Positions 1 to 29,455 of a stretch of 64,000 bases of DNA are shown here, piece after piece. This DNA comes from Deltaproteobacteria bacterium (GTDB taxonomy: Bacteria > Myxococcota_A > Polyangia > JAAYKL01), in the NCBI GenBank assembly GCA_030595125.1, contig JAUVDV010000006.1, forward strand, positions 1 to 64,000, given 5' to 3'. The notes under the pieces were generated by a model. It worked only from the letters and a program-made list of their open reading frames with translations, was not told the origin of the DNA and searched no databases. The position numbers and the translations under genes are program-made. Numbering within the stretch: position 1 is the first letter of the stretch; each line of letters opens with the position of its first letter.

Positions 1-393
1 CTGATAGGATTGCGGAATACAACTTGTGTCCGTGACCGTATCCGTGTCCGACCCGGTTTCCGTGTCGGTGAAGGTGTCGGTGTCACTGTCGGTGTCCGTG
101 TCGGTGTCCGTGTCACTGTCGGTATCACTGTCGGTGTCACTATCCGTGTCGGAATCCGTGTCCCCATCGGTATCGCCATCAGTGTCCGCATCTGTCGAAC
201 CGCACTGGCACTCTCCCCACCCGTCCTCTCCACATATCTGGACGCCGATGCTGCCGTCCGGGCACTGGCACACGTGCTCATCACCGACTTCGCAATATTC
301 ATCGAGTCCAAGCATCGATCGCCCGCAACCGACCACACCGATCGTCGCCGACAACGCCCCCGCCACCAGGATTCTCGTCCATATTGACTTCAT
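1..393 (-). CDS. Stalked surface lipoprotein, 5' part only (runs off left edge)
   Basis: The reading frame is open from an ATG at 393 to base 1 (131 codons) and leaves the window without a stop. The N-terminus has a signal peptide with lipobox VVGC (Cys23), so the product should be a lipoprotein. It is followed by a Cys-rich segment containing CQCPDGSIGVQICG and GWGECQC, a pattern frequent in myxobacterial exported proteins. After that comes a long run of Thr-Asp/Ser-Asp dipeptides encoded by hexanucleotide repeats on the complementary strand. GAGAGG lies upstream of the ATG. It is transcribed divergently from the lipoprotein array to its right. The function is unknown; any C-terminal domain lies outside the window. 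Confidence 0.8.
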   Translation of the reverse strand, partial: MKSIWTRILVAGALSATIGVVGCGRSMLGLDEYCEVGDEHVCQCPDGSIGVQICGEDGWGECQCGSTDADTDGDTDGDTDSDTDSDTDSDTDSDTDTDTDTDSDTDTFTDTETGSDTDTVTDTSCIPQSYQ

Positions 394-478
394 TATAATT
401 GCCTCTCGCTTTTTTCCAGTACCTACTTAGTAGCATAGAGCCGCGAAAAAGACCGAAATACGGTTATTCGATGGTCCA

Positions 479-516
479 TGATAGAATGCTCTTACGTACA
501 AAACGAAAGGCGGGGG
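479..516 (+). promoter_or_regulatory. Extended -10 promoter and RBS cassette, copy 1
   Basis: TGA-TAGAAT (479-487) reads as an extended -10 element. The purine-rich leader GAAAGGCGGGGG ends just before the ATG at 518. No good -35 hexamer is visible, as expected for extended -10 promoters. The same layout recurs before three later genes of the array. The 394-517 gap between the two divergent lipoprotein genes holds nothing else that I recognise. Confidence 0.5.
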
Positions 517-517
517 A

Positions 518-1723
518 ATGCGATATCTGATGTTGATGGTGCTGGCGACCGTGCTGGTCGGTGGCGGGTGCTCGAACGGTTCGTCGGACAGTGACGGTGG
601 GACCGACACCGACACAGGTCCGATCGAATGCAATAAAGCTCAATACACTGGCGATTTCACGATCTGCGCTCAGGAAGATATGGCAATCCTTTCGGGACAC
701 ACTTCTATCTCGGGAAACCTGGATATTGCCTGCCCTTCTTGCACAGACTTGAGCGAATTGGCTTGCCTGGTCATGGTGGGTGGAAGCATGTCGATTTATT
801 CCAGCAACTCCCTCACCAGCCTGAACGGTCCTGGTGACCTCGCTACAGTGGGTGAGGATCTGAACATCTCGGACAACGATTCCCTCATTAATCTAGTTGG
901 CCTTGACTCCCTCGACTCTGTTGGCGGGGACCTGAGCATCTCCGGCAACGGTGCCCTCACCGGCCTGAACGGTCTCGGCGCCATCACTTCTATAGAAGAA
1001 GGGGGTTGGTTGACGATTGAAAACAACGATTCTCTCACCAATATTGACGGCCTGAGCGGCCTCACTTCGGTGTCAGCCTTTAAAATCTCCAACAACGACT
1101 CCCTCATCAATATTGATGGACTGAGCGGAATAACCTCTGATGACCAAAGCATAACAATTACAAACAATGCAGCCCTCACCAACCTGGACGGTCTAAGTGG
1201 ACTCACGTCATTGTTTGACACAATAATCAGCGAGAATCCTGTTCTTACAAACATTGACGGACTGAGTGGAGTCATCAAGGCAGACTATGATATGAAGATT
1301 GAAAACAACGATTCCCTCACCAATATTGACGGCCTGAGCACTCTCGAAAATGTTTTCCAATTCCTTCAAATCTCATCGAATGACTCCCTCACAAATCTGG
1401 ATGGTCTGAGCGCTCTCGAAAGTGTTTACTCGGCAATTCGAATCTCATCGAATGACTCCCTCACAAATCTGGATGGTCTGAGCGCCCTTACACAAATACA
1501 TGAGTATGGTTTGACGATTGAAAACAACGCCTCTCTCTCTAACCTGGACGGGCTGAGTGCACTCACCTCGATGGGCGACGCCTTGAACATCTTCGACAAC
1601 GACGTCCTACCCGACTGCGAGGCGTGCGACCTGCTTGATCAGCTCACCAGCGTACCCGCTTCGATTGATGTGCACGACAACCTCGACGACACATGCACGC
1701 CGGTTCCGACAGGCTGTCCATAG
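518..1723 (+). CDS. LRR/L-domain-like repeat lipoprotein, paralogue 1
   Basis: 401 residues. The signal peptide starts MRYLMLMVLATVLVGGGC; Cys18 is the likely lipidated residue, although the lipobox (VGGGC) is not canonical. A short Asp/Thr linker follows, then an N-terminal module (GDFTICAQEDMAIL...) shared with its paralogues. About ten repeats of 24 residues follow, with the consensus x-L-x-I-x-x-N-x-S/A-L-T-N-L/I-D-G-L-S-x-L/I-T-S. A Cys-rich cap (CEACDLLDQLTSV...DDTCTPVP) is also shared. The repeat resembles leucine-rich or receptor-L-domain solenoids, so a surface binding role is inferred. The repeats are close enough at DNA level to carry a perfect 45-bp direct repeat. Four paralogues lie in tandem to 6209. 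Confidence 0.85.
   Translation: MRYLMLMVLATVLVGGGCSNGSSDSDGGTDTDTGPIECNKAQYTGDFTICAQEDMAILSGHTSISGNLDIACPSCTDLSELACLVMVGGSMSIYSSNSLTSLNGPGDLATVGEDLNISDNDSLINLVGLDSLDSVGGDLSISGNGALTGLNGLGAITSIEEGGWLTIENNDSLTNIDGLSGLTSVSAFKISNNDSLINIDGLSGITSDDQSITITNNAALTNLDGLSGLTSLFDTIISENPVLTNIDGLSGVIKADYDMKIENNDSLTNIDGLSTLENVFQFLQISSNDSLTNLDGLSALESVYSAIRISSNDSLTNLDGLSALTQIHEYGLTIENNASLSNLDGLSALTSMGDALNIFDNDVLPDCEACDLLDQLTSVPASIDVHDNLDDTCTPVPTGCP
1369..1485 (+). repeat. Perfect 45-bp direct repeat, period 72 bp, inside paralogue 1
   Basis: Bases 1369-1413 and 1441-1485 are identical, and the 72-bp period equals one 24-residue protein repeat. This indicates recent duplication or conversion of a repeat unit. 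Slippage or recombination between such units would change repeat number without shifting frame. Confidence 0.85.
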
Positions 1724-1760
1724 GCGTTTCTTGCTCTTTGTGACGTGCTTCCCTGATCGG

Positions 1761-1798
1761 TGGTAAGATGACGCTATGTACAGAACGAAGGTGGGGTG
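1761..1798 (+). promoter_or_regulatory. Extended -10 promoter and RBS cassette, copy 2
   Basis: TGG-TAAGAT (1761-1769) is the most divergent of the four copies. It is followed by GAACGAAGGTGGGGTG directly before the ATG at 1799. The position relative to the start codon matches the other copies. Confidence 0.4.
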
Positions 1799-3082
1799 AT
1801 GAGGTACTTGCTGTTGATGGCGCTTACGACCGTGCTGGTTAGCGGCGGGTGCTCGAACGGTTCGTCGGGCGGAGACGACAGTGGGACGACCGACTCGGAC
1901 TCGGACACCGATTCCGATTCCGATTCCGACTCCGACTCCGACTCTGATATGGATACCGACACGAGTACCGGTCCAATTGAGTGCAACCTGGGAGAGTACA
2001 GCGGCAATCTCACGGTCAGCACGCAACCAGACGTTGCAACCCTCGCGGGATACACATCGATCTCGGGAGATCTCACAGTCGACTGCTGTTATTGCACCGA
2101 CTTGAGCGAGCTGATTTGCCTCACCTCGGTGGGCGGGGATCTGTACATCTCCGGTTTTGACGGCCTCGCAAATCTGAACGGGCTGAGCGCCCTCACTTCG
2201 GTGGGGGGAGACTTGTCGATCGAACACAACTGCAGCTGGGACTTTACCAACCTTGACGGGCTGAACGCCCTCACTTCGGTGGGGGGGGACTTGTCGATCC
2301 GGGGCAACTGGTTCCTCACCAACCTTGACGGGTTGAGCGGGATCACCTCGGTGGTTGGAGGCTTGTACATCATCGGCGACGACGAACTTGATAACATTGA
2401 CGGTCTGAGCGGTATCACCTCGGTGGGCTTGAGTCTGAAGATCAACGACCAACGGACCCTCACCAACCTGGACGGTCTGAGCGGCATCACCTCGGTGGGT
2501 GAGGACTTGTGGATTAACAACAACTACGCCCTCACCAACGTGGGCGGGTTGAGCGGTATCACCTCTGTGGGCGGGGGCTTGATGATCGACAACAACCACG
2601 CACTCACCGACCTGGACGGCCTGAGCGCCCTCACCTCGGCGCTGGGTGGGGATTTATGGATCCGTTACAACGATGCCCTCACCGACATGGGCGGGATGAG
2701 CGGGATTACTTCTGTGGCGGGGGAGTTATATATCGGCATGAATAACGTCCTCATCAACCTTGACGGGCTCAGCGGCATCACCTCTGTGAGCTGGGACTTG
2801 GAAATCTACGGCAACGCCGCCCTCTACAGCCTGGACGGTCTAGGCGGTCTTCTCTCTGTAGGCTTGGACTTGACAATCTCTCATAACGACGCCCTCACCA
2901 ACCTGGACGGTCTGAGCAGTATCACCTCGGTGGGTGAGGGCTTGTGGGTCTATCACAACGACACCCTTCCCGCTTGCGAGGTGTGTGACTTGCTGGACCA
3001 GCTCACCAGCGGACCTGCTTCGATACACGTTTCCCAAAATCTCCACGACCCGTGCACGCCGGTTCCGGCCGACTGTCCGTAG
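1799..3082 (+). CDS. LRR/L-domain-like repeat lipoprotein, paralogue 2
   Basis: 427 residues from ATG 1799. A GTG at 1796 is in frame, but the MRYL start is conserved in the other copies. The signal peptide ends in LVSGGC (Cys18). A Ser/Thr-Asp stalk follows (roughly residues 28-60), then the shared N-terminal module, about eleven 24-residue repeats and the shared Cys-rich cap. It is the longest paralogue. Bases 2305-2342 match 3655-3692 of paralogue 3 almost exactly, with two differences, although the surrounding units differ. This suggests exchange between neighbours. A surface adhesion or binding role is inferred from the solenoid and lipobox only. Confidence 0.85.
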   Translation: MRYLLLMALTTVLVSGGCSNGSSGGDDSGTTDSDSDTDSDSDSDSDSDSDMDTDTSTGPIECNLGEYSGNLTVSTQPDVATLAGYTSISGDLTVDCCYCTDLSELICLTSVGGDLYISGFDGLANLNGLSALTSVGGDLSIEHNCSWDFTNLDGLNALTSVGGDLSIRGNWFLTNLDGLSGITSVVGGLYIIGDDELDNIDGLSGITSVGLSLKINDQRTLTNLDGLSGITSVGEDLWINNNYALTNVGGLSGITSVGGGLMIDNNHALTDLDGLSALTSALGGDLWIRYNDALTDMGGMSGITSVAGELYIGMNNVLINLDGLSGITSVSWDLEIYGNAALYSLDGLGGLLSVGLDLTISHNDALTNLDGLSSITSVGEGLWVYHNDTLPACEVCDLLDQLTSGPASIHVSQNLHDPCTPVPADCP

Positions 3083-3105
3083 GTCGTGCGCCTTTCTCCG
3101 ATCCC

Positions 3106-3145
3106 TGATAAAATACTCTCACGTCCATAATGAAAGGCGGGGGAA
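3106..3145 (+). promoter_or_regulatory. Extended -10 promoter and RBS cassette, copy 3
   Basis: TGA-TAAAAT (3106-3114) is followed by ACTCTCACGTCCATAATGAA and AGGCGGGGGAA, ending at the TTG start at 3146. The stretch CTCTCACGTCCAT is shared with copy 4 (around 4138-4150), so the conservation extends past the -10 element. Confidence 0.55.
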
Positions 3146-4102
3146 TTGCGGTACTTGATTCTACTGATCCTGGCGACCGTGCTGGTTTGCGGCGGGTGTG
3201 CGGATAACTCGTCGAGCAGTGACGGTGGGACCGACACGGATACAGATACTGACACGGATTCCGACACGGATTCCGACACGGATTCCGACACGGATACGGA
3301 CACCGATTCCGACACCGATACTGACACCGGCCCCGACTGCACTCAAGGAGAGTACTCCGGCGATTTCGTCATCAACACACAATCGGACGTTGCAACACTC
3401 GCAGGATACACTTCAATCTCAGGAGACCTTGAAATCATTTGCGAGGAGTGCACCGACTTGAGCGAGCTGATTTGCCTCACCTCGGTGGGCGGGGGCTTGG
3501 ACATCCGCGACAACGCCGCCCTCACCACTCTGGACGGGCTTGGCTTCCTCACCTCAGTGGGTGGGGACTTGAAAATCTACAATAACGACGCCCTCGCCAA
3601 CCTGGACGAACTGAGCGCTCTCACATCATTGGGGGGGCACTTGTGGATCGAAGACAACTGGTTCCTCACCAACCTTGACGGGCTGAGCGGCATCACCGGT
3701 TCGGTGGGATGGGGTTTGGGGATCTACAACAACCCCGCCCTCACGAACCTGGACGGCCTGAGTGGCATCACCTCGGTGGGCTGGAACTTGGGGATCTACA
3801 ACAACCCCGCCCTCACAAACCTTAACGGGCTGAGCGGCATCACGTCGGTGGGCTGGGAATTGCACATCAGAAACAACAATGCCCTCACAAACGTGGACGG
3901 CCTTAGCGCACTCACCACGTTGGGCGGGGACTTGAAAATCTACTGGAACGCTGTCCTGCCTGACTGCAAGGCGTGCGATCTTCTGGACCAGCTTACCAGC
4001 GTACCTACTGGCATCCTTGTCCAAGGCAACCTGGACGACACATGCACGCCGGTGCCGGGTAACTGCCCCGGCTATGACGCTGGTGTTGATGGTGGGCCGT
4101 AG
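3146..4102 (+). CDS. LRR/L-domain-like repeat lipoprotein, paralogue 3
   Basis: 318 residues. The start is TTG at 3146, chosen because TTG-CGG-TAC-TTG gives the conserved MRYL and sits directly after the shared RBS. The signal peptide ends in VCGGC (Cys18). A 30-residue Ser/Thr-Asp stalk is followed by the shared N-terminal module, six to seven 24-residue repeats and the Cys-rich cap with a short extra tail. Two adjacent units (IYNNPALTNL...) are nearly identical in DNA. It is shorter than paralogues 1 and 2, so repeat number varies between copies. It is likely anchored in the outer membrane and surface-exposed (inference). Confidence 0.85.
   Translation: MRYLILLILATVLVCGGCADNSSSSDGGTDTDTDTDTDSDTDSDTDSDTDTDTDSDTDTDTGPDCTQGEYSGDFVINTQSDVATLAGYTSISGDLEIICEECTDLSELICLTSVGGGLDIRDNAALTTLDGLGFLTSVGGDLKIYNNDALANLDELSALTSLGGHLWIEDNWFLTNLDGLSGITGSVGWGLGIYNNPALTNLDGLSGITSVGWNLGIYNNPALTNLNGLSGITSVGWELHIRNNNALTNVDGLSALTTLGGDLKIYWNAVLPDCKACDLLDQLTSVPTGILVQGNLDDTCTPVPGNCPGYDAGVDGGP
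3233..3327 (+). repeat. Hexanucleotide/12-mer tandem repeat encoding the Asp-Thr/Asp-Ser stalk
   Basis: About sixteen in-frame hexamers of the form GAC/T-A/T-C-N encode alternating Asp and Thr/Ser. The 12-mer GACACGGATTCC is repeated perfectly three times at 3251-3286. Changes in copy number would alter stalk length by two residues per hexamer without a frameshift. Similar tracts encode stalks in the genes at 1-393, 1799-3082, 4168-5661, 12297-12800, 51798-52796 and 54504-56633. Confidence 0.85.
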
Positions 4103-4127
4103 TAGTCCGGACAATGGTGAAGACCCA

Positions 4128-4167
4128 TGTTAGAATGCTCTCACGTCCATATTGAAAGGCGGAGGTT
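4128..4167 (+). promoter_or_regulatory. Extended -10 promoter and RBS cassette, copy 4
   Basis: TGT-TAGAAT (4128-4136) is followed by GCTCTCACGTCCATATTGAA and AGGCGGAGG before the GTG at 4168. CGGACA, 17 bp upstream of the -10 element (4108-4113), is a possible -35. The fifth gene (5676) keeps only the RBS part and follows a 14-bp gap, so it is probably co-transcribed from here. Confidence 0.55.
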
Positions 4168-5661
4168 GTGCGATACTTGATCGTTGTAGGGTTGGCAGCC
4201 GTGATTTCAGCGGGTTGCTGGACCCAGCAAGAAATCGTCATCGGTAACGATACCGGTTCCGACTCAGATATCGACACTGATACCGATTCGGATGTGGATG
4301 CCGATACGGATACGGACACCGATACTGATACAGACTCAGACACCGACACCGGCCCCTTCCAGTACCCGGGGCGGGGGTGGGCGTTTGCTGTTGCGGTAGA
4401 TAACGCGGGCAGCATCGTTGTCGCAGGATCCTTCTGGGACACGATTGGGTTTGGCGGTGAGCCTCTCGACGCCCACGGCGACGAAGACGACATCTTCATT
4501 GCGAAGTTCGACAGCGACGGCGATCACTTGTGGAGCAGGGGTTTTGGTGGCTACGAAGCAGACTCAGCCCGCTCGGTTGCCATCGACGGCCTCGGGAACG
4601 TGATCCTCGTCGGAACGTTCAGGGGAGACGTGAGCTTCGGTGGCGAACTGCTTTCGTCAGCAGGGGAGTTGGACATTTTCACGGTCAAGCTCAATTCGGA
4701 AGGCGGTCACGTCTGGAGCAAGAGGTTTGGCAGTGCGAGCAACGATCACGGCTACGATGTCGCGCTCGACAGCGCAAACCACTTGCTGTTCACCGGGATG
4801 TTCAGCGACACCATCGATTTCGGCGGTGGCCCACTCACGAATGCTGGAGCACCTGACATCTACGTTGCCAAGCTCAGCTCTGACGGGAGCCATTTGTGGA
4901 GCAACCGCTACGGCGCTGAAGGCAACGACTATGGTATGTCGATCGCTGTCGATGGGGCCGACAACGCCGTGCTCACCGGCTGGTTCAGTGAGACTACCGA
5001 TTTCGGCGGCGGCGCCATTACCAGCGCAGGTAGTAAGGACATCTTTTTGCTCGCGCTCAACGAGAACGGCGATCACATGTCGAGCGTTGGGTTCGGTGGA
5101 CCAAACTGGGGGGACAGAGGAGTGGCTATCTGGATCGACGACTCCGGGGACTTGCTACTCACCGGAACATTCGAGGACGAGATCGACTTCGGCGGTGGCA
5201 CGCTAACCGGCAGCGGGGACGAGGATCTGTTCCTGGCCAGGTTCGACTCGGCGGGGGTTCATCAGTGGAGCATGGGTGGCGGTGGCGAGAGTACTTTTGA
5301 TCATGGACAGGCGGTTGTCACCAACAGCTCAGACCACGTCATCTTCACCGGTTACTTCGCAGGTACCGTGGATTTCGGTGGCGGACCGCTCACCTCGACT
5401 GGGGACGATTGGGACATCTTCCTGGCCCAATACGGCTCTGGGGGGAACCACTTGTGGAGCAAGCGCTTCGGCGTTCCCGGCTGGGACGGCGCAACGGGTC
5501 TGGCGGTGGACCATGAGGACAACCTGATTATCGTGGGCTACATCAGCGGCACCGTGGACTTTGGCGGCGACCCGTTGGTCTGCAACTCGGGGCACGCTGC
5601 CTTTGTCGCCAAGTTCGATTCCGACGGTAACCACATCTGGAGCAAGAGCTTTGGAGACTGA
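4168..5661 (+). CDS. SBBP beta-propeller lipoprotein
   Basis: 497 residues. The start is GTG 4168, giving the same MRYL start as its neighbours. The lipobox is SAGC (Cys17), followed by a Ser/Thr-Asp stalk to about residue 68. Seven tandem units of about 60 residues fill the rest. Each follows the pattern xxVAVDxxxNVxxTGxF, then DFGGGxLTSxGxxDIF, then AKxxSDGxHLWSKRFG, which is characteristic of SBBP beta-propeller repeats. Seven units suit a complete seven-bladed propeller. It shares promoter cassette, signal peptide and stalk with the LRR paralogues but has an unrelated head domain, so the family appears to swap heads on a common anchor. Confidence 0.85.
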   Translation: MRYLIVVGLAAVISAGCWTQQEIVIGNDTGSDSDIDTDTDSDVDADTDTDTDTDTDSDTDTGPFQYPGRGWAFAVAVDNAGSIVVAGSFWDTIGFGGEPLDAHGDEDDIFIAKFDSDGDHLWSRGFGGYEADSARSVAIDGLGNVILVGTFRGDVSFGGELLSSAGELDIFTVKLNSEGGHVWSKRFGSASNDHGYDVALDSANHLLFTGMFSDTIDFGGGPLTNAGAPDIYVAKLSSDGSHLWSNRYGAEGNDYGMSIAVDGADNAVLTGWFSETTDFGGGAITSAGSKDIFLLALNENGDHMSSVGFGGPNWGDRGVAIWIDDSGDLLLTGTFEDEIDFGGGTLTGSGDEDLFLARFDSAGVHQWSMGGGGESTFDHGQAVVTNSSDHVIFTGYFAGTVDFGGGPLTSTGDDWDIFLAQYGSGGNHLWSKRFGVPGWDGATGLAVDHEDNLIIVGYISGTVDFGGDPLVCNSGHAAFVAKFDSDGNHIWSKSFGD

Positions 5662-5675
5662 GGAAAGGCGGGGGA

Positions 5676-6209
5676 ATGCGATATCTAATGTTGATGCTCC
5701 TCGCGACCATGCTGGTGTGGGGTGGGTGCTCACACGTTTCGTCCACCGGAGATGCCGGTCCGGTTGAGTGCAATCTGGGAGAGTACAGCAGCAGCTTCGA
5801 GATCGAAACACAATCGGATGTCGCAACCCTCGCGGGTTACACCTCTATCTCGGGAACCCTTACAATCCAGTGCCCTTCTTGCACCAACTTGAACGAGTTG
5901 ATTTGCCTCACCTCGGTGCGCGATTACTTATTGATTGAACACAACCACCTTCCCAACCTGGATGGCCTGAGCGCCCTCACCTCGGTAGGCTGGGGCTTGA
6001 GGATCTTCGACAACATCGGCCTCTCAAACCTGGACGGATTGGGCGCTCTCACTTCGGTGGGCGAGGGCTTGTTGATCGGGTTCAACTACCCCCTGCACGA
6101 CTGCGAGGTGTGCGACCTGCTTGATCAGCTCACCGTCACCCCCATAAATATAGATGTCCACGGCAACCTCGACGACACATGCACGCCGGTTCCGGCGAAC
6201 TGTCCATAG
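5676..6209 (+). CDS. LRR/L-domain-like repeat lipoprotein, paralogue 4 (short)
   Basis: 177 residues. ATG 5676 follows the conserved GAAAGGCGGGGGA. The signal peptide is MRYLMLMLLATMLVWGGC (Cys18). The Ser/Thr-Asp stalk is missing and only two to three repeats separate the N-terminal module (GEYSSSFEIETQSDVATL) from the Cys-rich cap. It has no promoter of its own and begins 14 bp after the propeller gene. It could be a contracted copy or a minimal functional form. Confidence 0.85.
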   Translation: MRYLMLMLLATMLVWGGCSHVSSTGDAGPVECNLGEYSSSFEIETQSDVATLAGYTSISGTLTIQCPSCTNLNELICLTSVRDYLLIEHNHLPNLDGLSALTSVGWGLRIFDNIGLSNLDGLGALTSVGEGLLIGFNYPLHDCEVCDLLDQLTVTPINIDVHGNLDDTCTPVPANCP

Positions 6210-25018: not shown

Positions 25019-28000
25019 TTACATCGACAATCCCCGCGCGAAAACTGGAATGAAATTTCCCGAACCCCCAACGTGTCCCAGAGATCCGTATTGGCTGACA
25101 AAGAAATCCGCCGGGAAAAGAGGCCAGACTATCATGCTCGCCGTCTTTGTCGGCTGAAGGTCTATTTCGGTGTTTATTCTTACGTGTGAAAAGAGCCTCT
25201 GCGGCCCGTCGAAAGACGCCGGGAACGCAAGCCCCGCCGCCATCGCGTCGTAGGTGATCGCCTCGGCGTCAATATCTTCAAATGCCACATAAAATACATC
25301 ATGATTGTTACCGGCCGGACGGTAGAGAACGTAGACCCTGGTGACAGGCGCGATTGGACTTCCGGCCGGGATGGTAACCATGCGAGGCGAGGCGCTCAAT
25401 GAGACATCCACTCCCACACCCTCCGGTTCCGCAGCGGGTTTGAGCTTGCGCTTCCAGTCGCCCATCGGAGCGAGGTTGAAGTTGGCTTTCTTGAAGACCA
25501 CGCACGACATCCGTCCGACCTCCTGGCCGTATCTGAAGTCCGTACATGCGACCACGTTATCCCGTACTATCTGCACCATGGGGCTTAAATCCGTGATGGT
25601 TTCTCCAACCGTAGCGAGGCCGGGAGTGTACTTCGCTTTGCCGATCTGGTGATCAATAGAAGTGAAGGGATCGTCGGTCGCGCCGTACTCTCGAACGATT
25701 GCTGCCCGGACGCCTCCACCATATTCGGTAGCTCCCAAAAACGACACCGCCACGGTGCTCACGTTGAGTAACGGGATGGAGAATACCGACCCGTCGTCCC
25801 CTGGACCGGGATCCGGCGCTGGCAGCGGCGGCGGCTGCCAGTTCGAGAACTCCATCGCGACGGGGGCGGGCGAATCGGCCAGCGTGGAGAGGAAGGCTAT
25901 TGTGTTGGGCAGCACGGTCGCCAGGTCGGTGAGCGCCTGCGGGTTGGATACGGCAGCATTGGCCAGACCTCTATTCAGCGCTCTTTTTTGCAACGAGAAG
26001 GAGCCTTCCGCGCTCGAAGGCGCGTGCTCGGACCGCCATGTAGGCATGCGGGAGACACCGAGCCCGTCGGTATCGGTCAGCACACCGAGGCCGTTGAAGA
26101 AGTTGCCGTAGTCTCCAGGAGGAGGAAGCGGAGACTGCGCCGCCGCCGCCCCTTGCAGCACGGGCTGCTGCTGTATGTCGTCGAGGGTGAAGCCTAGGGA
26201 CTCCAGCATTGTTATTGTCATCGCCTCCGCCGGGTTGATGACGCTCATCCATTCTCCGATGAACCAATAGTCATAGCCCGGCTCCGGGTGGTCTATCTCG
26301 TGGAAATCGAGCGGGTGCGCAATGTATCCCCGGTCTACCAACGTGGAGCGCAACGCCCCGTGAATCTCGGTTTCATCGTCGTAGACGACCTCGCTCCAAG
26401 TGCCGCACGGATTGTAAAGTTGATCACCGTCGCCCGTCGCCGTGTGTGGATTCAGCGTCGCGTAGGCCATGTGACCGTATTGTGAGGTAGGCTGATCGTA
26501 CTGGCTCCACGCGACCCATATTCGATCGCCCAGGTTGACGGCGGTGGGCGCGAATCCGGAGATGGCAGTGGTGGGCGCGGTATCGTCCGGCAACGTAAAT
26601 TCCGGAAGCTCGCACTCGGCGATCTTGTTCCAGCCGCTGCCCGTGCCGCTCATCTCCAAAACCGAATAACTCAGCGGTCTGGGAAAATCGTGTGTCCCCC
26701 ACGTTCCGGAGCTTTCGTTCGCCCTTGTAAACAGGTACAGCCGTTGGTGGTTCACGTCGGCGAACCAGGTCACCGCCTCCATGTCGCTTGGAGCGCTGGA
26801 CGGACCGGCGTAGAAAGCATCTCCCGCATCAAGGAACACGCGAGTATCGCGGAGGGATTCTTGTATTCTATCCCTTTGCGTGGGTGAAAACCCCGAACCG
26901 TACTCGGCCACATAATCGACTTTGGCGGCCCAATCATTGTAGGTCTCGAGTTGAGAGCCGCTGTAGATGGACTGAAGCAGGTCGCGCTGTTTCTCGGCCG
27001 ATTCTTTTTCAGGGTAGGTTTCCTCATAGGAGTAGTAAAACGAATATAGGGCGCTCTCAAAACCGGACAGATCCCAGAAGAATCGGTTGTGGATGCCGTT
27101 GTCGGTGTGGGAGACGCCGTATCCCGATCCGCATTTGCAGGTGGTGCCTGAAGAGGGATTGAGTGATTGGCAGTATGCAAACCTATAATCATCATCTAAA
27201 TGGTTTCCAGTTTCAGACTGCTCCCAAACATCCCACTGGAATTGGTATCCAGAGCTGGGCGAGATCTCTCCGCCCTGGACGAGCTGATCGAAGGTCTCGG
27301 CGCCTCGGCCGTGGCCGTGGTTCTTGTTGTTGGGTTCCGCGAAAGAGCGCCACATGTTTTCGGCGTAGTCGGCTTCTGATGGGTTAAAATGCAGTTCCTC
27401 AATGGCACTACACCTGGTCGCTTGTCCGACGGCATGAACCTGGATGTTCTGGTGCGTGTAGCTAAGCATCGAATTGTCCCAGGTGTTGAAGAAAGGGTGA
27501 TCGACCTCGTACATCCAGTCATCGTCCGGCATGGGGGCACCGTCGCAGTAGTAGCCGATCTCCTCCGGACAATCCGAATCCCCGTGTAGTGATTCGTAAC
27601 GATATAGAGCGTTCCATATCATACCGAACGCGTCGGCTCGGCCTTCCTCGAGGCCCCAATCAGGAAGAGTGTCGACTGCGGTGGCTGGTTTCGTCTGGTA
27701 TCCGATGGATGAATCGCCGGTTCTATGACCGAACTCGTGAGCCAGGGTTGTGGTGTAGAAAGCTCCTTCTACGAAATAGAGGTCCCCTGTGTCGTTGCGG
27801 TAGAACGCTATTGTCTGGCCTCCCATCTTCGCCTTGGAGTAAAATCTCAAGGGGTATGAGTTAGTACCCATGACGTCAGTGTCGGAAAGTCCTGCATCCT
27901 CGAGATATTCCCAGATCAGCTCTTCGGCGAGATAGGCCACGGGCTGAAGTTGCTCACGTTCGAACAGTTCCAAATACGAGTTGGCCGATGAAGGTTGATC

Positions 28001-29455
28001 CCAGTCGTTGCTGTCGGGAGCCCAGTCGTTGCCATCGTCATCGCCGCCGTCCCAGACTTTAATGGTGGAGTAGTGCTGATCGGCTGAAGGGTCAAGCCCG
28101 CTGAGAAGGCAAATCCCGCCGTTACAGACATAAGCCTCATCATATCCAACATCTACATGGTGAATTATCACGTGATGATCATCTGGGCTGGTGTCGGGAA
28201 GAACGTCGTAGTAATGCGGCCAGCTCCAATCCAGCATGTGCTTCTCAAGGACATATCCGGTTATGGCGTCAACGCGAAACGCGCCGATTTGCAGACCGGT
28301 GTCCGTGTCGATAGCGGCGATTTCATACACCAACATGCTGGCGGTTCTGTCGTCCAATCCTCTTACTATAAAGATTTCGTTTTTCGTAGCGCCTACGTTT
28401 TGCACGCCCTCAAACGATGCTATGGCCCGGGTTGCCTCGTCAATGGTAATATCCGGGGTGGTGCCGTGGGAGATGGATGGAAGCAGAGAATTTCCAATCT
28501 CCACTATCTCCATGCTGCCGTTGACCGTGACGTAAAGGTCACCGTTTATCACTCTCACTCCGTTGAAGGTCTGCCGGTAGATCACAACCTCGCTGTCGGT
28601 ATTCGCGTCCGGTCTGACTGACGATACAAGGTCGCCATAATCTGCATCCAGACCGAGAACCAGCTCGCCGAAGTCATCCACAAAATCGTCCGCCATTTCC
28701 TGCGCGTCGGCAGGCGCGGATGCCAGGCCCAGCATATCCGAAGTCAACGGAGCGCCGATAGCGAGACGAAGCGCACCGTCGTCGTGAAAAGAAAATGTAG
28801 AGCTGCCCGGCACCTGCCCGTACCAAGAATGCCGCGCGATCTCCTCCGCGCGGTCGGCGAAGGACATGGCCGCGAGCTCGTCCGCCGTTTTCTGTCTATG
28901 AGCGTTCGCCCACGACTGAACGAGATACCCCGCGCATTCAGCGTCGGAGATCCCCATGGTGGAGCAGTCCCTGCAATCCGCCGGACACTCCCAGGGTGTC
29001 TCGTGCTCGCCGCAGATCCCGTCGCCGCAGTTTGCGCAGAAGTACAGGCCGCAATCTTCACCGGGAACGCAGCCGGTCATCGCCGTGAGACCGTCGCAGC
29101 AAAGATCGGGATCGCCCGTGGCGCCGCCTTCCCACATGCACTCGATACACACCATCCCGGGTCCCGGAGTCAGATCGTTGCAGGTTTGACTCGACGGGCA
29201 GTCCATGTCATCGACGCAGGGGATCTCGCACGTCTCGGTCGGAACTCCATCCGAATCGTCGTATGCCAGGCAGGTGAGAGACACGTAGCATGCAGTTGCG
29301 CTACAGTCTTCGTGCTGTTCGGCACATGTCTTACAACCGATACCAACGCCCAGCAGCATCAACAGAAGAACCGGAACGCGCCACCTGCTGGAAAGAAGAC
29401 GGGGAAAAAGGCCTGCCAAAAATCCATCCTTGTCATTGCGTCGAGGGGATCTCAT
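25019..29455 (-). CDS. Large gluzincin-type metalloprotease lipoprotein
   Basis: 1478 residues. The signal peptide ends LLGVGIGC (Cys41). A Cys-rich region (residues about 42-165) includes CGDGICGEHETPWECPADC. Then comes an FTP-like propeptide (VVIYRQTFNGVRVINGDLYV). The catalytic motif HEFGH is at 573-577, and E604-G-R-A-D608 supplies the third zinc ligand in the thermolysin-type ExxxD arrangement. The last 800 residues are beta-rich with no family recognised. It is inferred to be an exported, self-processing protease. It is the largest gene of the block inserted between ftsQ and ftsA. Confidence 0.85.
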   Translation of the reverse strand: MRSPRRNDKDGFLAGLFPRLLSSRWRVPVLLLMLLGVGIGCKTCAEQHEDCSATACYVSLTCLAYDDSDGVPTETCEIPCVDDMDCPSSQTCNDLTPGPGMVCIECMWEGGATGDPDLCCDGLTAMTGCVPGEDCGLYFCANCGDGICGEHETPWECPADCRDCSTMGISDAECAGYLVQSWANAHRQKTADELAAMSFADRAEEIARHSWYGQVPGSSTFSFHDDGALRLAIGAPLTSDMLGLASAPADAQEMADDFVDDFGELVLGLDADYGDLVSSVRPDANTDSEVVIYRQTFNGVRVINGDLYVTVNGSMEIVEIGNSLLPSISHGTTPDITIDEATRAIASFEGVQNVGATKNEIFIVRGLDDRTASMLVYEIAAIDTDTGLQIGAFRVDAITGYVLEKHMLDWSWPHYYDVLPDTSPDDHHVIIHHVDVGYDEAYVCNGGICLLSGLDPSADQHYSTIKVWDGGDDDGNDWAPDSNDWDQPSSANSYLELFEREQLQPVAYLAEELIWEYLEDAGLSDTDVMGTNSYPLRFYSKAKMGGQTIAFYRNDTGDLYFVEGAFYTTTLAHEFGHRTGDSSIGYQTKPATAVDTLPDWGLEEGRADAFGMIWNALYRYESLHGDSDCPEEIGYYCDGAPMPDDDWMYEVDHPFFNTWDNSMLSYTHQNIQVHAVGQATRCSAIEELHFNPSEADYAENMWRSFAEPNNKNHGHGRGAETFDQLVQGGEISPSSGYQFQWDVWEQSETGNHLDDDYRFAYCQSLNPSSGTTCKCGSGYGVSHTDNGIHNRFFWDLSGFESALYSFYYSYEETYPEKESAEKQRDLLQSIYSGSQLETYNDWAAKVDYVAEYGSGFSPTQRDRIQESLRDTRVFLDAGDAFYAGPSSAPSDMEAVTWFADVNHQRLYLFTRANESSGTWGTHDFPRPLSYSVLEMSGTGSGWNKIAECELPEFTLPDDTAPTTAISGFAPTAVNLGDRIWVAWSQYDQPTSQYGHMAYATLNPHTATGDGDQLYNPCGTWSEVVYDDETEIHGALRSTLVDRGYIAHPLDFHEIDHPEPGYDYWFIGEWMSVINPAEAMTITMLESLGFTLDDIQQQPVLQGAAAAQSPLPPPGDYGNFFNGLGVLTDTDGLGVSRMPTWRSEHAPSSAEGSFSLQKRALNRGLANAAVSNPQALTDLATVLPNTIAFLSTLADSPAPVAMEFSNWQPPPLPAPDPGPGDDGSVFSIPLLNVSTVAVSFLGATEYGGGVRAAIVREYGATDDPFTSIDHQIGKAKYTPGLATVGETITDLSPMVQIVRDNVVACTDFRYGQEVGRMSCVVFKKANFNLAPMGDWKRKLKPAAEPEGVGVDVSLSASPRMVTIPAGSPIAPVTRVYVLYRPAGNNHDVFYVAFEDIDAEAITYDAMAAGLAFPASFDGPQRLFSHVRINTEIDLQPTKTASMIVWPLFPADFFVSQYGSLGHVGGSGNFIPVFARGLSM

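What the first reader, a model, noticed from the sequence alone, without database searches (positions are those of the whole stretch)
518..6209. Tandem family of head-swapping, repeat-number-variable surface lipoproteins
Five adjacent genes share the MRYL signal peptide and RBS, and most share a promoter and an Asp-rich stalk. Four carry a solenoid of 24-residue units in about 10, 11, 6-7 and 2-3 copies between the same N-terminal module and Cys-rich cap. The fifth carries an unrelated seven-blade propeller on the same anchor. Near-identical 72-bp units within genes, and a 38-bp stretch shared between paralogues 2 and 3 (2305-2342 and 3655-3692), suggest ongoing exchange. This could be a cassette system that diversifies surface binding.
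Basis: partly seen in the sequence, partly recalled or inferred. Interest (0 to 1): 0.72.

Follow-up and report, generated by a model that had tools for sequence, protein, structure and literature searches.

The report
Head-swapping repertoire of LRR surface lipoproteins
A cold-seep bacterium carries at least 87 genes for leucine-rich-repeat lipoproteins, probably on its surface, whose gene number, repeat number and binding domains differ between closely related species at the same chromosomal sites while the promoter and membrane anchor stay the same; this looks like a recombining repertoire of recognition proteins.

Summary
Four leucine-rich-repeat (LRR) lipoproteins and one seven-blade propeller share one promoter/RBS/signal-peptide leader. 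The cluster is a small part of something larger. The genome holds at least 87 genes with this LRR N-module and/or Cys-rich cap (74 with both; 741 repeat units; lengths in 24-residue steps), scattered among housekeeping genes. The expansion is specific to the genus. The same leader DNA also precedes at least six unrelated head types.

The proposed test was run between species (flanks about 90% identical). At the window locus G002 keeps only gene 5, joined to gene 1's promoter inside the shared leader; G001 has the propeller but no gene 5. At 14 one-gene-to-one-gene syntenic sites, 3 keep gene and unit number, 3 differ by one unit, 3 are mosaic and 5 carry a replaced head; further sites differ in gene number. 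One site keeps promoter, signal peptide and stalk nearly intact while the head drops to paralogue level. Unit variation concentrates on the outward strand face and is rich in W, Y and R.

Not supported: unit-cassette shuffling, hypermutation, or dedicated machinery. Strain-level switching and ligands are untested. Best reading: a recombining repertoire of binding lipoproteins.

The parts
518..1723 (+). Gene 1: lipoprotein, signal peptide 518-571, very short Asp-rich linker, N-module, 11 LRR units, Cys-rich C-cap
1799..3082 (+). Gene 2: lipoprotein, Asp/Ser/Thr stalk, N-module, 11 LRR units, C-cap (listed from GTG 1796; ATG at 1799)
3146..4102 (+). Gene 3 (TTG start): lipoprotein, long DTDTDS stalk, N-module, 6 LRR units, C-cap; mature part modelled with mean pLDDT 92.7
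4168..5661 (+). Gene 4 (GTG start): same type of leader and stalk, unrelated seven-blade SBBP propeller head (PF06739; weak LipL53-family match)
5676..6209 (+). Gene 5: shortest LRR member (2 full units), no stalk, no own promoter; 96.5% identical orthologue is the only LRR gene at this site in G002; absent from this place in G001
470..571 (+). Leader module of gene 1: TAGAAT-type -10 region, 5' UTR with GAAAGGCGGGG RBS, signal peptide; the stretch from about 510 to 543 is where the G002 locus joins gene 5
1751..1852 (+). Leader module of gene 2
3098..3199 (+). Leader module of gene 3
4120..4221 (+). Leader module of gene 4 (propeller), found by the leader profile at E 2.8e-13
5661..5729 (+). 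Truncated leader of gene 5 (RBS and signal peptide only); in G001 the sequence diverges at this RBS, directly after the propeller stop
626..769 (+). N-module (Cys-containing cap) of gene 1
1979..2122 (+). N-module of gene 2
3335..3478 (+). N-module of gene 3
5766..5909 (+). N-module of gene 5
770..1606 (+). LRR units of gene 1 (72-bp period)
2123..2965 (+). LRR units of gene 2
3479..3955 (+). LRR units of gene 3
5910..6092 (+). LRR units of gene 5
1607..1720 (+). C-cap of gene 1 (LPDCEACDLLDQLT...CTPVPxxCP)
2966..3079 (+). C-cap of gene 2
3956..4069 (+). C-cap of gene 3
6093..6206 (+). C-cap of gene 5
1..462 (-). Conserved left flank (start of another DTD-stalk, Cys-rich lipoprotein gene), 84% identical in G002; the next contig to the left is C195
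6463..7281 (-). Conserved right flank (first gene of a minus-strand cluster); protein 95% identical in G001 and 91-97% in G002

Best explanation
The cluster is one site of a genome-wide repertoire of at least 87 LRR lipoproteins. Each is built as promoter/RBS/signal-peptide leader, Asp-rich stalk, Cys-containing N-module, about 1 to 22 LRR units of 24 residues, and Cys-rich cap. The units form a solenoid whose outward strand positions (x in xLxIxxN) are free to vary and act as the binding face (the fold and the variability are shown by prediction and statistics; binding is inferred). The repertoire changes by recombination at shared homologous stretches: leaders recombine so that a new head or a whole gene comes under an existing promoter and anchor; repeats recombine so that units are gained or lost; whole genes are gained, lost, replaced or passed between related species at fixed sites (all seen as products in species comparisons; ordinary homologous recombination as the process is inferred, because no dedicated enzyme was found). 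The binding face is under purifying selection between orthologues, so diversity comes from gene turnover rather than hypermutation. The likeliest use is surface recognition or adhesion to changing partners (prey, particles, neighbours) or escape from phages or predators that recognise the surface (inferred).
For: Repertoire: 74 genes with both N-module and C-cap plus 13 with one, lengths mostly quantised at 24 residues; genus-specific expansion: 271, 99 and 156 matches in g1 against 1-20 in eleven other genomes of the family. Window locus: G002 has only gene 5 (96.5%), with gene 1's promoter, the junction lying within the identical leader; G001 has the propeller, identical at its end, then diverges at gene 5's RBS. 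Sites with both flanks conserved (mean identity 87-98%): of 14 one-to-one sites 3 unchanged, 3 with one unit more or fewer, 3 mosaic, 5 replaced; plus copy-number differences, including a clean empty site (L143/L197). In-place head swap: L127/L191 92-100% identical from -350 through promoter and signal peptide into the stalk, head 74-78%, 88-100% downstream of the stop. Unit slip: L129/L236, 99.5% identical N-module, differing by exactly 24 residues. Leader travels apart from head: promoter and signal-peptide distances correlate (r 0.54), leader and N-module do not (r about 0, null sd 0.08); L094 tandem pair has promoter and signal peptide 98-100% identical and N-module and C-cap 71-75%; one leader profile precedes LRR, SBBP, FG-GAP and at least three other heads. 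Binding face: entropy 4.0, 3.9, 3.6 and 3.5 bits at unit positions 2, 4, 5 and 24, against 0.3-1.4 at the structural positions; W, Y and R enriched about 4- to 10-fold at positions 2 and 4; the model puts positions 1-4 on the strands.
Against: No unit of 72 nt is shared exactly between two genes of this genome, so exchange of single units must be rare or old. dN/dS at the binding face between orthologous units is 0.46-0.59, not above 1. No recombinase or diversity-generating reverse transcriptase is associated. All genomes compared are metagenome bins from single species representatives, so population-level variation is not shown; one contig (L198) may be chimeric. Cell-surface exposure and ligand binding are untested.
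Confidence: 0.68

Rival explanations
1. Ordinary birth-and-death evolution of a large adhesin family: tandem duplication, divergence and loss, with no special role of the leader or of recombination between paralogues; leaders look alike only because signal peptides and promoters are constrained.
For: Tandem neighbours exist; units resemble units of their own gene more than chance (17.8% nearest neighbours in the same gene against 1.4% expected, mostly adjacent); no identical units are shared between genes.
Against: At sites with flanks about 90% identical the head is replaced between an unchanged leader and an unchanged downstream flank (L127/L191); tandem genes with 98-100% identical promoter and signal peptide have heads no closer than random family members (L094); 114-nt identical C-caps on different contigs; the leader module precedes unrelated folds with DNA-level E-values down to 1e-27.
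Confidence: 0.2
2. An actively switching antigenic or recognition variation system inside single populations, with a dedicated recombinase acting on the leader or on the repeats, comparable to Mycoplasma vsp or Borrelia vlsE.
For: Shared leader DNA, junctions in the leader, a one-unit slip in genes otherwise 99.5% identical at the N-module.
Against: Most genes examined have their own promoter-like leader and an open frame; no silent cassettes without leaders stood out; no recombinase near the genes; no recently shared units; face residues of orthologues are conserved.
Confidence: 0.09
3. Assembly or binning artefact: short-read contigs joined wrongly at repeats, making heads appear exchanged.
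For: MEGAHIT assemblies (PMC10491686), contig coverage down to 5x; L198 joins one context at 90% and another at 98.8% around an LRR gene.
Against: Replaced heads are bounded on both sides by the same conserved flanks in one contig, needing two coordinated errors per site; 99% of paralogue pairs share exact stretches of at most 38 nt, far below the k-mers in the contig names (119-127); a clean empty site exists; the pattern repeats at several loci in two bins.
Confidence: 0.03

Closest known systems
Variable lymphocyte receptors (VLR) of jawless vertebrates
   Same: LRR solenoid with distinct N-terminal module, variable number of units and cap; outward strand positions (xxLxLxx) hypervariable and used for binding (PMC5395774)
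   Different: VLRs are assembled somatically from many LRR cassettes (own knowledge); here complete genes lie in the genome, no unit is shared between genes, and turnover is seen only between species
Mycoplasma Vsp/Vlp/Vpma variable surface lipoproteins
   Same: Families of repeat-bearing surface lipoproteins that differ in gene content and repeats between strains (PMC3120828); shared leader and variable repeat number are known for vsp/vlp loci (own knowledge)
   Different: Mycoplasma loci are clustered, switch expression through recombinases or promoter slippage and have low-complexity repeats (own knowledge); here at least 87 genes are dispersed, fold as LRR solenoids and show no recombinase
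Leptospira LRR proteins and Listeria internalins
   Same: Bacterial LRR adhesins; the closest solved folds to the model are InlA (8h64, E 2e-4; 2omy, TM 0.55 by query) and, among others, Leptospira LIC12234 (4tzh, TM 0.55 by target)
   Different: No meaningful sequence match to any solved structure; different Cys-containing caps, lipoprotein anchor with Asp-rich stalk, large family, head swapping
BspA-like LRR family of Trichomonas vaginalis
   Same: Very large family of surface LRR proteins (911 entries) with repeat variants between paralogues and isolates (PMC2843621)
   Different: Eukaryote, TpLRR type; a shared leader/anchor module with unrelated heads is not described in its abstract; membership not tested here
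CDI/Rhs polymorphic toxins (own knowledge)
   Same: Conserved N-terminal delivery part with variable C-terminal part exchanged at fixed loci
   Different: No toxin domain and no immunity gene recognised here; the whole head, not a tip domain, is exchanged

Membership tests
Recep_L_domain / LRR superfamily | Profile match above Pfam gathering score | tested here: met
   Genes 1-3: 39.2, 31.6 and 26.6 bits against 21.8; gene 5 16.0, below
Recep_L_domain / LRR superfamily | Solenoid of strands, one per unit | tested here: met
   AlphaFold2 model of gene 3, pLDDT 92.7, pTM 0.89, regular strands about every 24 residues
VLR-type receptor | Hypervariable strand positions in a conserved framework | tested here: met
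   Entropy 3.5-4.0 bits at positions 2, 4, 5, 24 against 0.3-1.4 at the structural positions
VLR-type receptor | Assembly from shared LRR cassettes (identical units reused in different genes) | tested here: not met
   No identical 72-nt unit shared by two genes of G000 among 741 units
Diversity-generating retroelement target | Linked or genomic DGR-type reverse transcriptase with template repeat | tested here: not met
   Two RT hits in the genome, both judged from sequence as group II intron type; template repeats not searched
Recombinase-driven phase-variable lipoprotein locus (Vsp type) | Site-specific recombinase in or beside the locus | tested here: inconclusive
   140 neighbour proteins scanned; no recombinase or transposase among the commonest 25 families, but only those 25 of 156 families were shown
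Recombinase-driven phase-variable lipoprotein locus (Vsp type) | Alternative arrangements within one clone | not testable with these tools
   One genome per species, no reads
Bacterial lipoprotein | Signal peptide with lipobox and Cys | tested here: met
   All five genes, and nearly all family members, show a lipobox-like Cys about 15-30 residues from the start
Leptospira LipL53-family SBBP lipoprotein (gene 4) | NCBIfam NF047494 cut-off | tested here: not met
   128.3 bits against cut-off 400: related fold, not a member

The most novel reading that the evidence does not exclude
A free-living bacterium keeps a genome-encoded, recombining repertoire of LRR recognition proteins, comparable in architecture and in its variable face to the variable lymphocyte receptors of jawless vertebrates, used to recognise changing partners; leaders act as exchange sites by which any head fold can be mounted on the same surface anchor.
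Probability: 0.2. Interest if true: 0.9.

Novelty: new variant of a known kind. Interest (0 to 1): 0.72.

Why it matters
Large, rapidly changing surface protein families are known mostly from pathogens under immune pressure. Here a bacterium whose nearest relatives come from cold-seep sediment metagenomes shows one at genome scale, with an LRR fold suited to binding, a leader module that carries unrelated folds, and direct products of head replacement at fixed sites. It makes testable what drives diversification of surface recognition outside hosts (prey, kin, phage or particles) and offers a natural library of many LRR binding faces.

Tried and rejected
1) Diversity-generating retroelement: only two reverse transcriptases in the genome, both of group II intron type judging by their sequences. 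2) Recombinase or transposon association: neighbours are mostly housekeeping proteins; no mobility family among the 25 commonest. 3) Unit-cassette traffic between genes: no identical 72-nt unit shared. 4) The 38-bp stretch of genes 2 and 3 as evidence of exchange: ordinary for the family. 5) Positive selection by point mutation on the binding face: dN/dS 0.46-0.59. 6) N-module against C-cap correlation (r 0.003) as proof of shuffling: not decisive, because the two halves of the cap do not correlate either (0.04). 7) Sequence match to solved structures: none of note; fold search gives only general LRR proteins. 8) One-flank pairings were not used for counts; the L118 pairings there were wrong (one search shows an insertion instead). 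9) L123/L198 was set aside as a possible chimera.
Full report
Observation. The five genes are present at 518-6209 and share leader, lipobox and, in three of them, a long Asp-rich stalk. Four have LRR heads (PF01030; gene 5 below the cut-off), one a seven-blade SBBP propeller. Periodicity and unit numbers (11, 11, 6 and 2 full units) are confirmed by two methods. Three details of the finding are wrong or weak: the propeller is the fourth gene, gene 5 lacks stalk and promoter, and the 38-bp shared stretch (36 of 38 identical) is ordinary for this family, where 12.3% of gene pairs share at least 28 nt exactly.

Scale. The window is contig C95 of a 5.39-Mb genome in 203 contigs. A search of that genome with gene 2 gave 227 matching stretches. 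After fetching the regions, 87 genes carried the N-module and/or the Cys-rich cap, 74 of them both; the span between the two runs from 3.4 to 24.8 unit lengths, mostly in steps of 24 residues. Two same-genus genomes, G001 and G002, have the same family; other genera of the family have 1-20 matches to gene 5's mature part against 99-271 in this genus. Contigs of G001 and G002 match records CSMAG_220 and CSMAG_2956, 'Deltaproteobacteria bacterium'; CSMAG bins come from a global cold-seep catalogue assembled with MEGAHIT (PMC10491686). The origin of G000 itself is not named. Neighbours of the LRR genes are mostly unrelated housekeeping genes.

The leader module. A DNA profile from 48 bases before to 54 bases after the start codon of 40 LRR genes finds 66 sites in the fetched parts of the genome: 54 were counted as LRR genes (at least one more, L127, was missed by that count because of a long upstream frame) and most of the rest lie in genes with other heads, among them FG-GAP propellers (L117, L096), SBBP propellers (window gene 4, L139), a Cys-rich repeat protein (L174), an FGE-like domain (L172), a WxxDG-type repeat protein (L171) and a VWA-like protein (L138) (domain names other than FG-GAP and SBBP are read from sequence). 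E-values for several of these are as low as 1e-23 to 1e-27. Promoter and signal peptide distances among genes correlate (r 0.54), while leader and N-module do not (r about 0; null sd 0.08); neighbouring parts of the N-module correlate at 0.25-0.33, so there is signal to be found. In the tandem pair at L094 promoter and signal peptide are 98-100% identical and N-module and C-cap 71-75%, the family average.

Species comparison. At the window locus G002 has conserved flanks and only gene 5 (96.5% identical), preceded by gene 1's promoter; the switch lies within about 34 bases of leader common to both. G001 has the propeller up to its stop codon and diverges at gene 5's ribosome-binding site; gene 5 is absent. 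In an automated table of sites with conserved flanks on both sides, 14 have one LRR gene in each genome: 3 keep gene and unit number (L097/L224, and L212/L235 and L222/L247, which are near-identical between species), 3 keep the gene with one unit more or fewer (L129/L236, L146/L228, L124/L206), 3 are mosaic (L101/L200, L113/L240, L244/L218) and 5 carry another head (L102/L238, L095/L205, L103/L207, L127/L191, L227/L202). Other sites differ in gene number, one as a clean empty site (L143/L197). The assignment to these classes is mine, from unit identities. The clearest head swap is C195/C142 (L127/L191): 92-100% identity through promoter and signal peptide into the stalk, 74-78% in the head, 88-100% after the stop. 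The clearest unit change is L129/L236: near-identical genes in two species, differing by exactly one 24-residue unit. The reverse case, a gene about 94% identical with unrelated flanks, is L209/L234. As a control, about 60-70% of a 20-kb stretch of the window has 84-92% identical counterparts in G001 and G002, whereas about 8 of 42 fetched G002 genes and 4 of 26 fetched G001 genes have a G000 counterpart at the thresholds (84%, 180 nt).

Fold and binding face. The model of gene 3 is confident (pLDDT 92.7, pTM 0.89) and shows strands about every 24 residues. Its nearest solved folds are internalin A and other LRR proteins at TM up to 0.55. Over 741 units, entropy is 4.0, 3.9, 3.6 and 3.5 bits at positions 2, 4, 5 and 24, and 0.3-1.4 at the structural Leu, Ile, Asn and Gly positions; Trp, Tyr and Arg are about 4- to 10-fold enriched at positions 2 and 4 relative to the gene bodies. 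That positions 2 and 4 point outward follows from alternation with the buried Leu and Ile on the strand (inference). Between orthologous units dN/dS is 0.46-0.59 at the face and 0.23 in the core: a given face is maintained by selection, so diversity arises by turnover.

Mechanism. Shown: the products listed above. Inferred: ordinary homologous recombination between leaders, conserved modules and repeats, with loss, gain and transfer between related species. Not found: shared units, a DGR, a recombinase. The use as a binding repertoire is inferred from the fold, the variable face and the predicted lipoprotein anchor.

Limits. One genome per species; short-read bins with 5-77x contig coverage in the records seen; no reads; the G000 list and especially the G001 and G002 lists are incomplete, since match listings were cut off. 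Replacement seen between species does not prove switching within a population.

Noticed in passing
L117:6694-7941, L096:2501-3589, L107:4654-5916: FG-GAP (51-residue repeat) propeller genes directly beside LRR genes, two of them with the same MRYL leader found by the leader profile; the genome has 145 FG-GAP_3 matches, so this may be a second expanded family.
   Followed up: partly
L222:1710-2468 and L247:5757-6515; L212:3453-4871 and L235:5004-6422: LRR genes 100% and 97.8% identical between G002 and G001 although the upstream or downstream flank falls to about 93%: possible recent transfer between species.
   Followed up: partly
L198 (G002:C152): Upstream part matches G000 contig C25 at 90%, downstream part matches C50 at 98.8%, with an LRR gene between: rearrangement or chimeric contig.
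   Followed up: partly
window 1-430 and L127:28-2834: Window contig C95 and contig C195 both map to G002:C142, so they are probably neighbours; the break lies in the DTD-repeat of a Cys-rich lipoprotein gene.
   Followed up: partly
G000:C65:9241-9918 and G000:C99:1313-1684: Two group II intron-like reverse transcriptases; the C99 frame overlaps a serine-recombinase-like gene (read from sequence).
   Followed up: no
window 25019-29455, minus strand: 1478-residue ORF with no Pfam family above cut-off (weak FTP propeptide match).
   Followed up: no
L156:10558-12411: 617-residue lipoprotein with DTD stalk whose sequence resembles CotH followed by a C-type lectin domain: another binding head on a similar anchor.
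   Followed up: no
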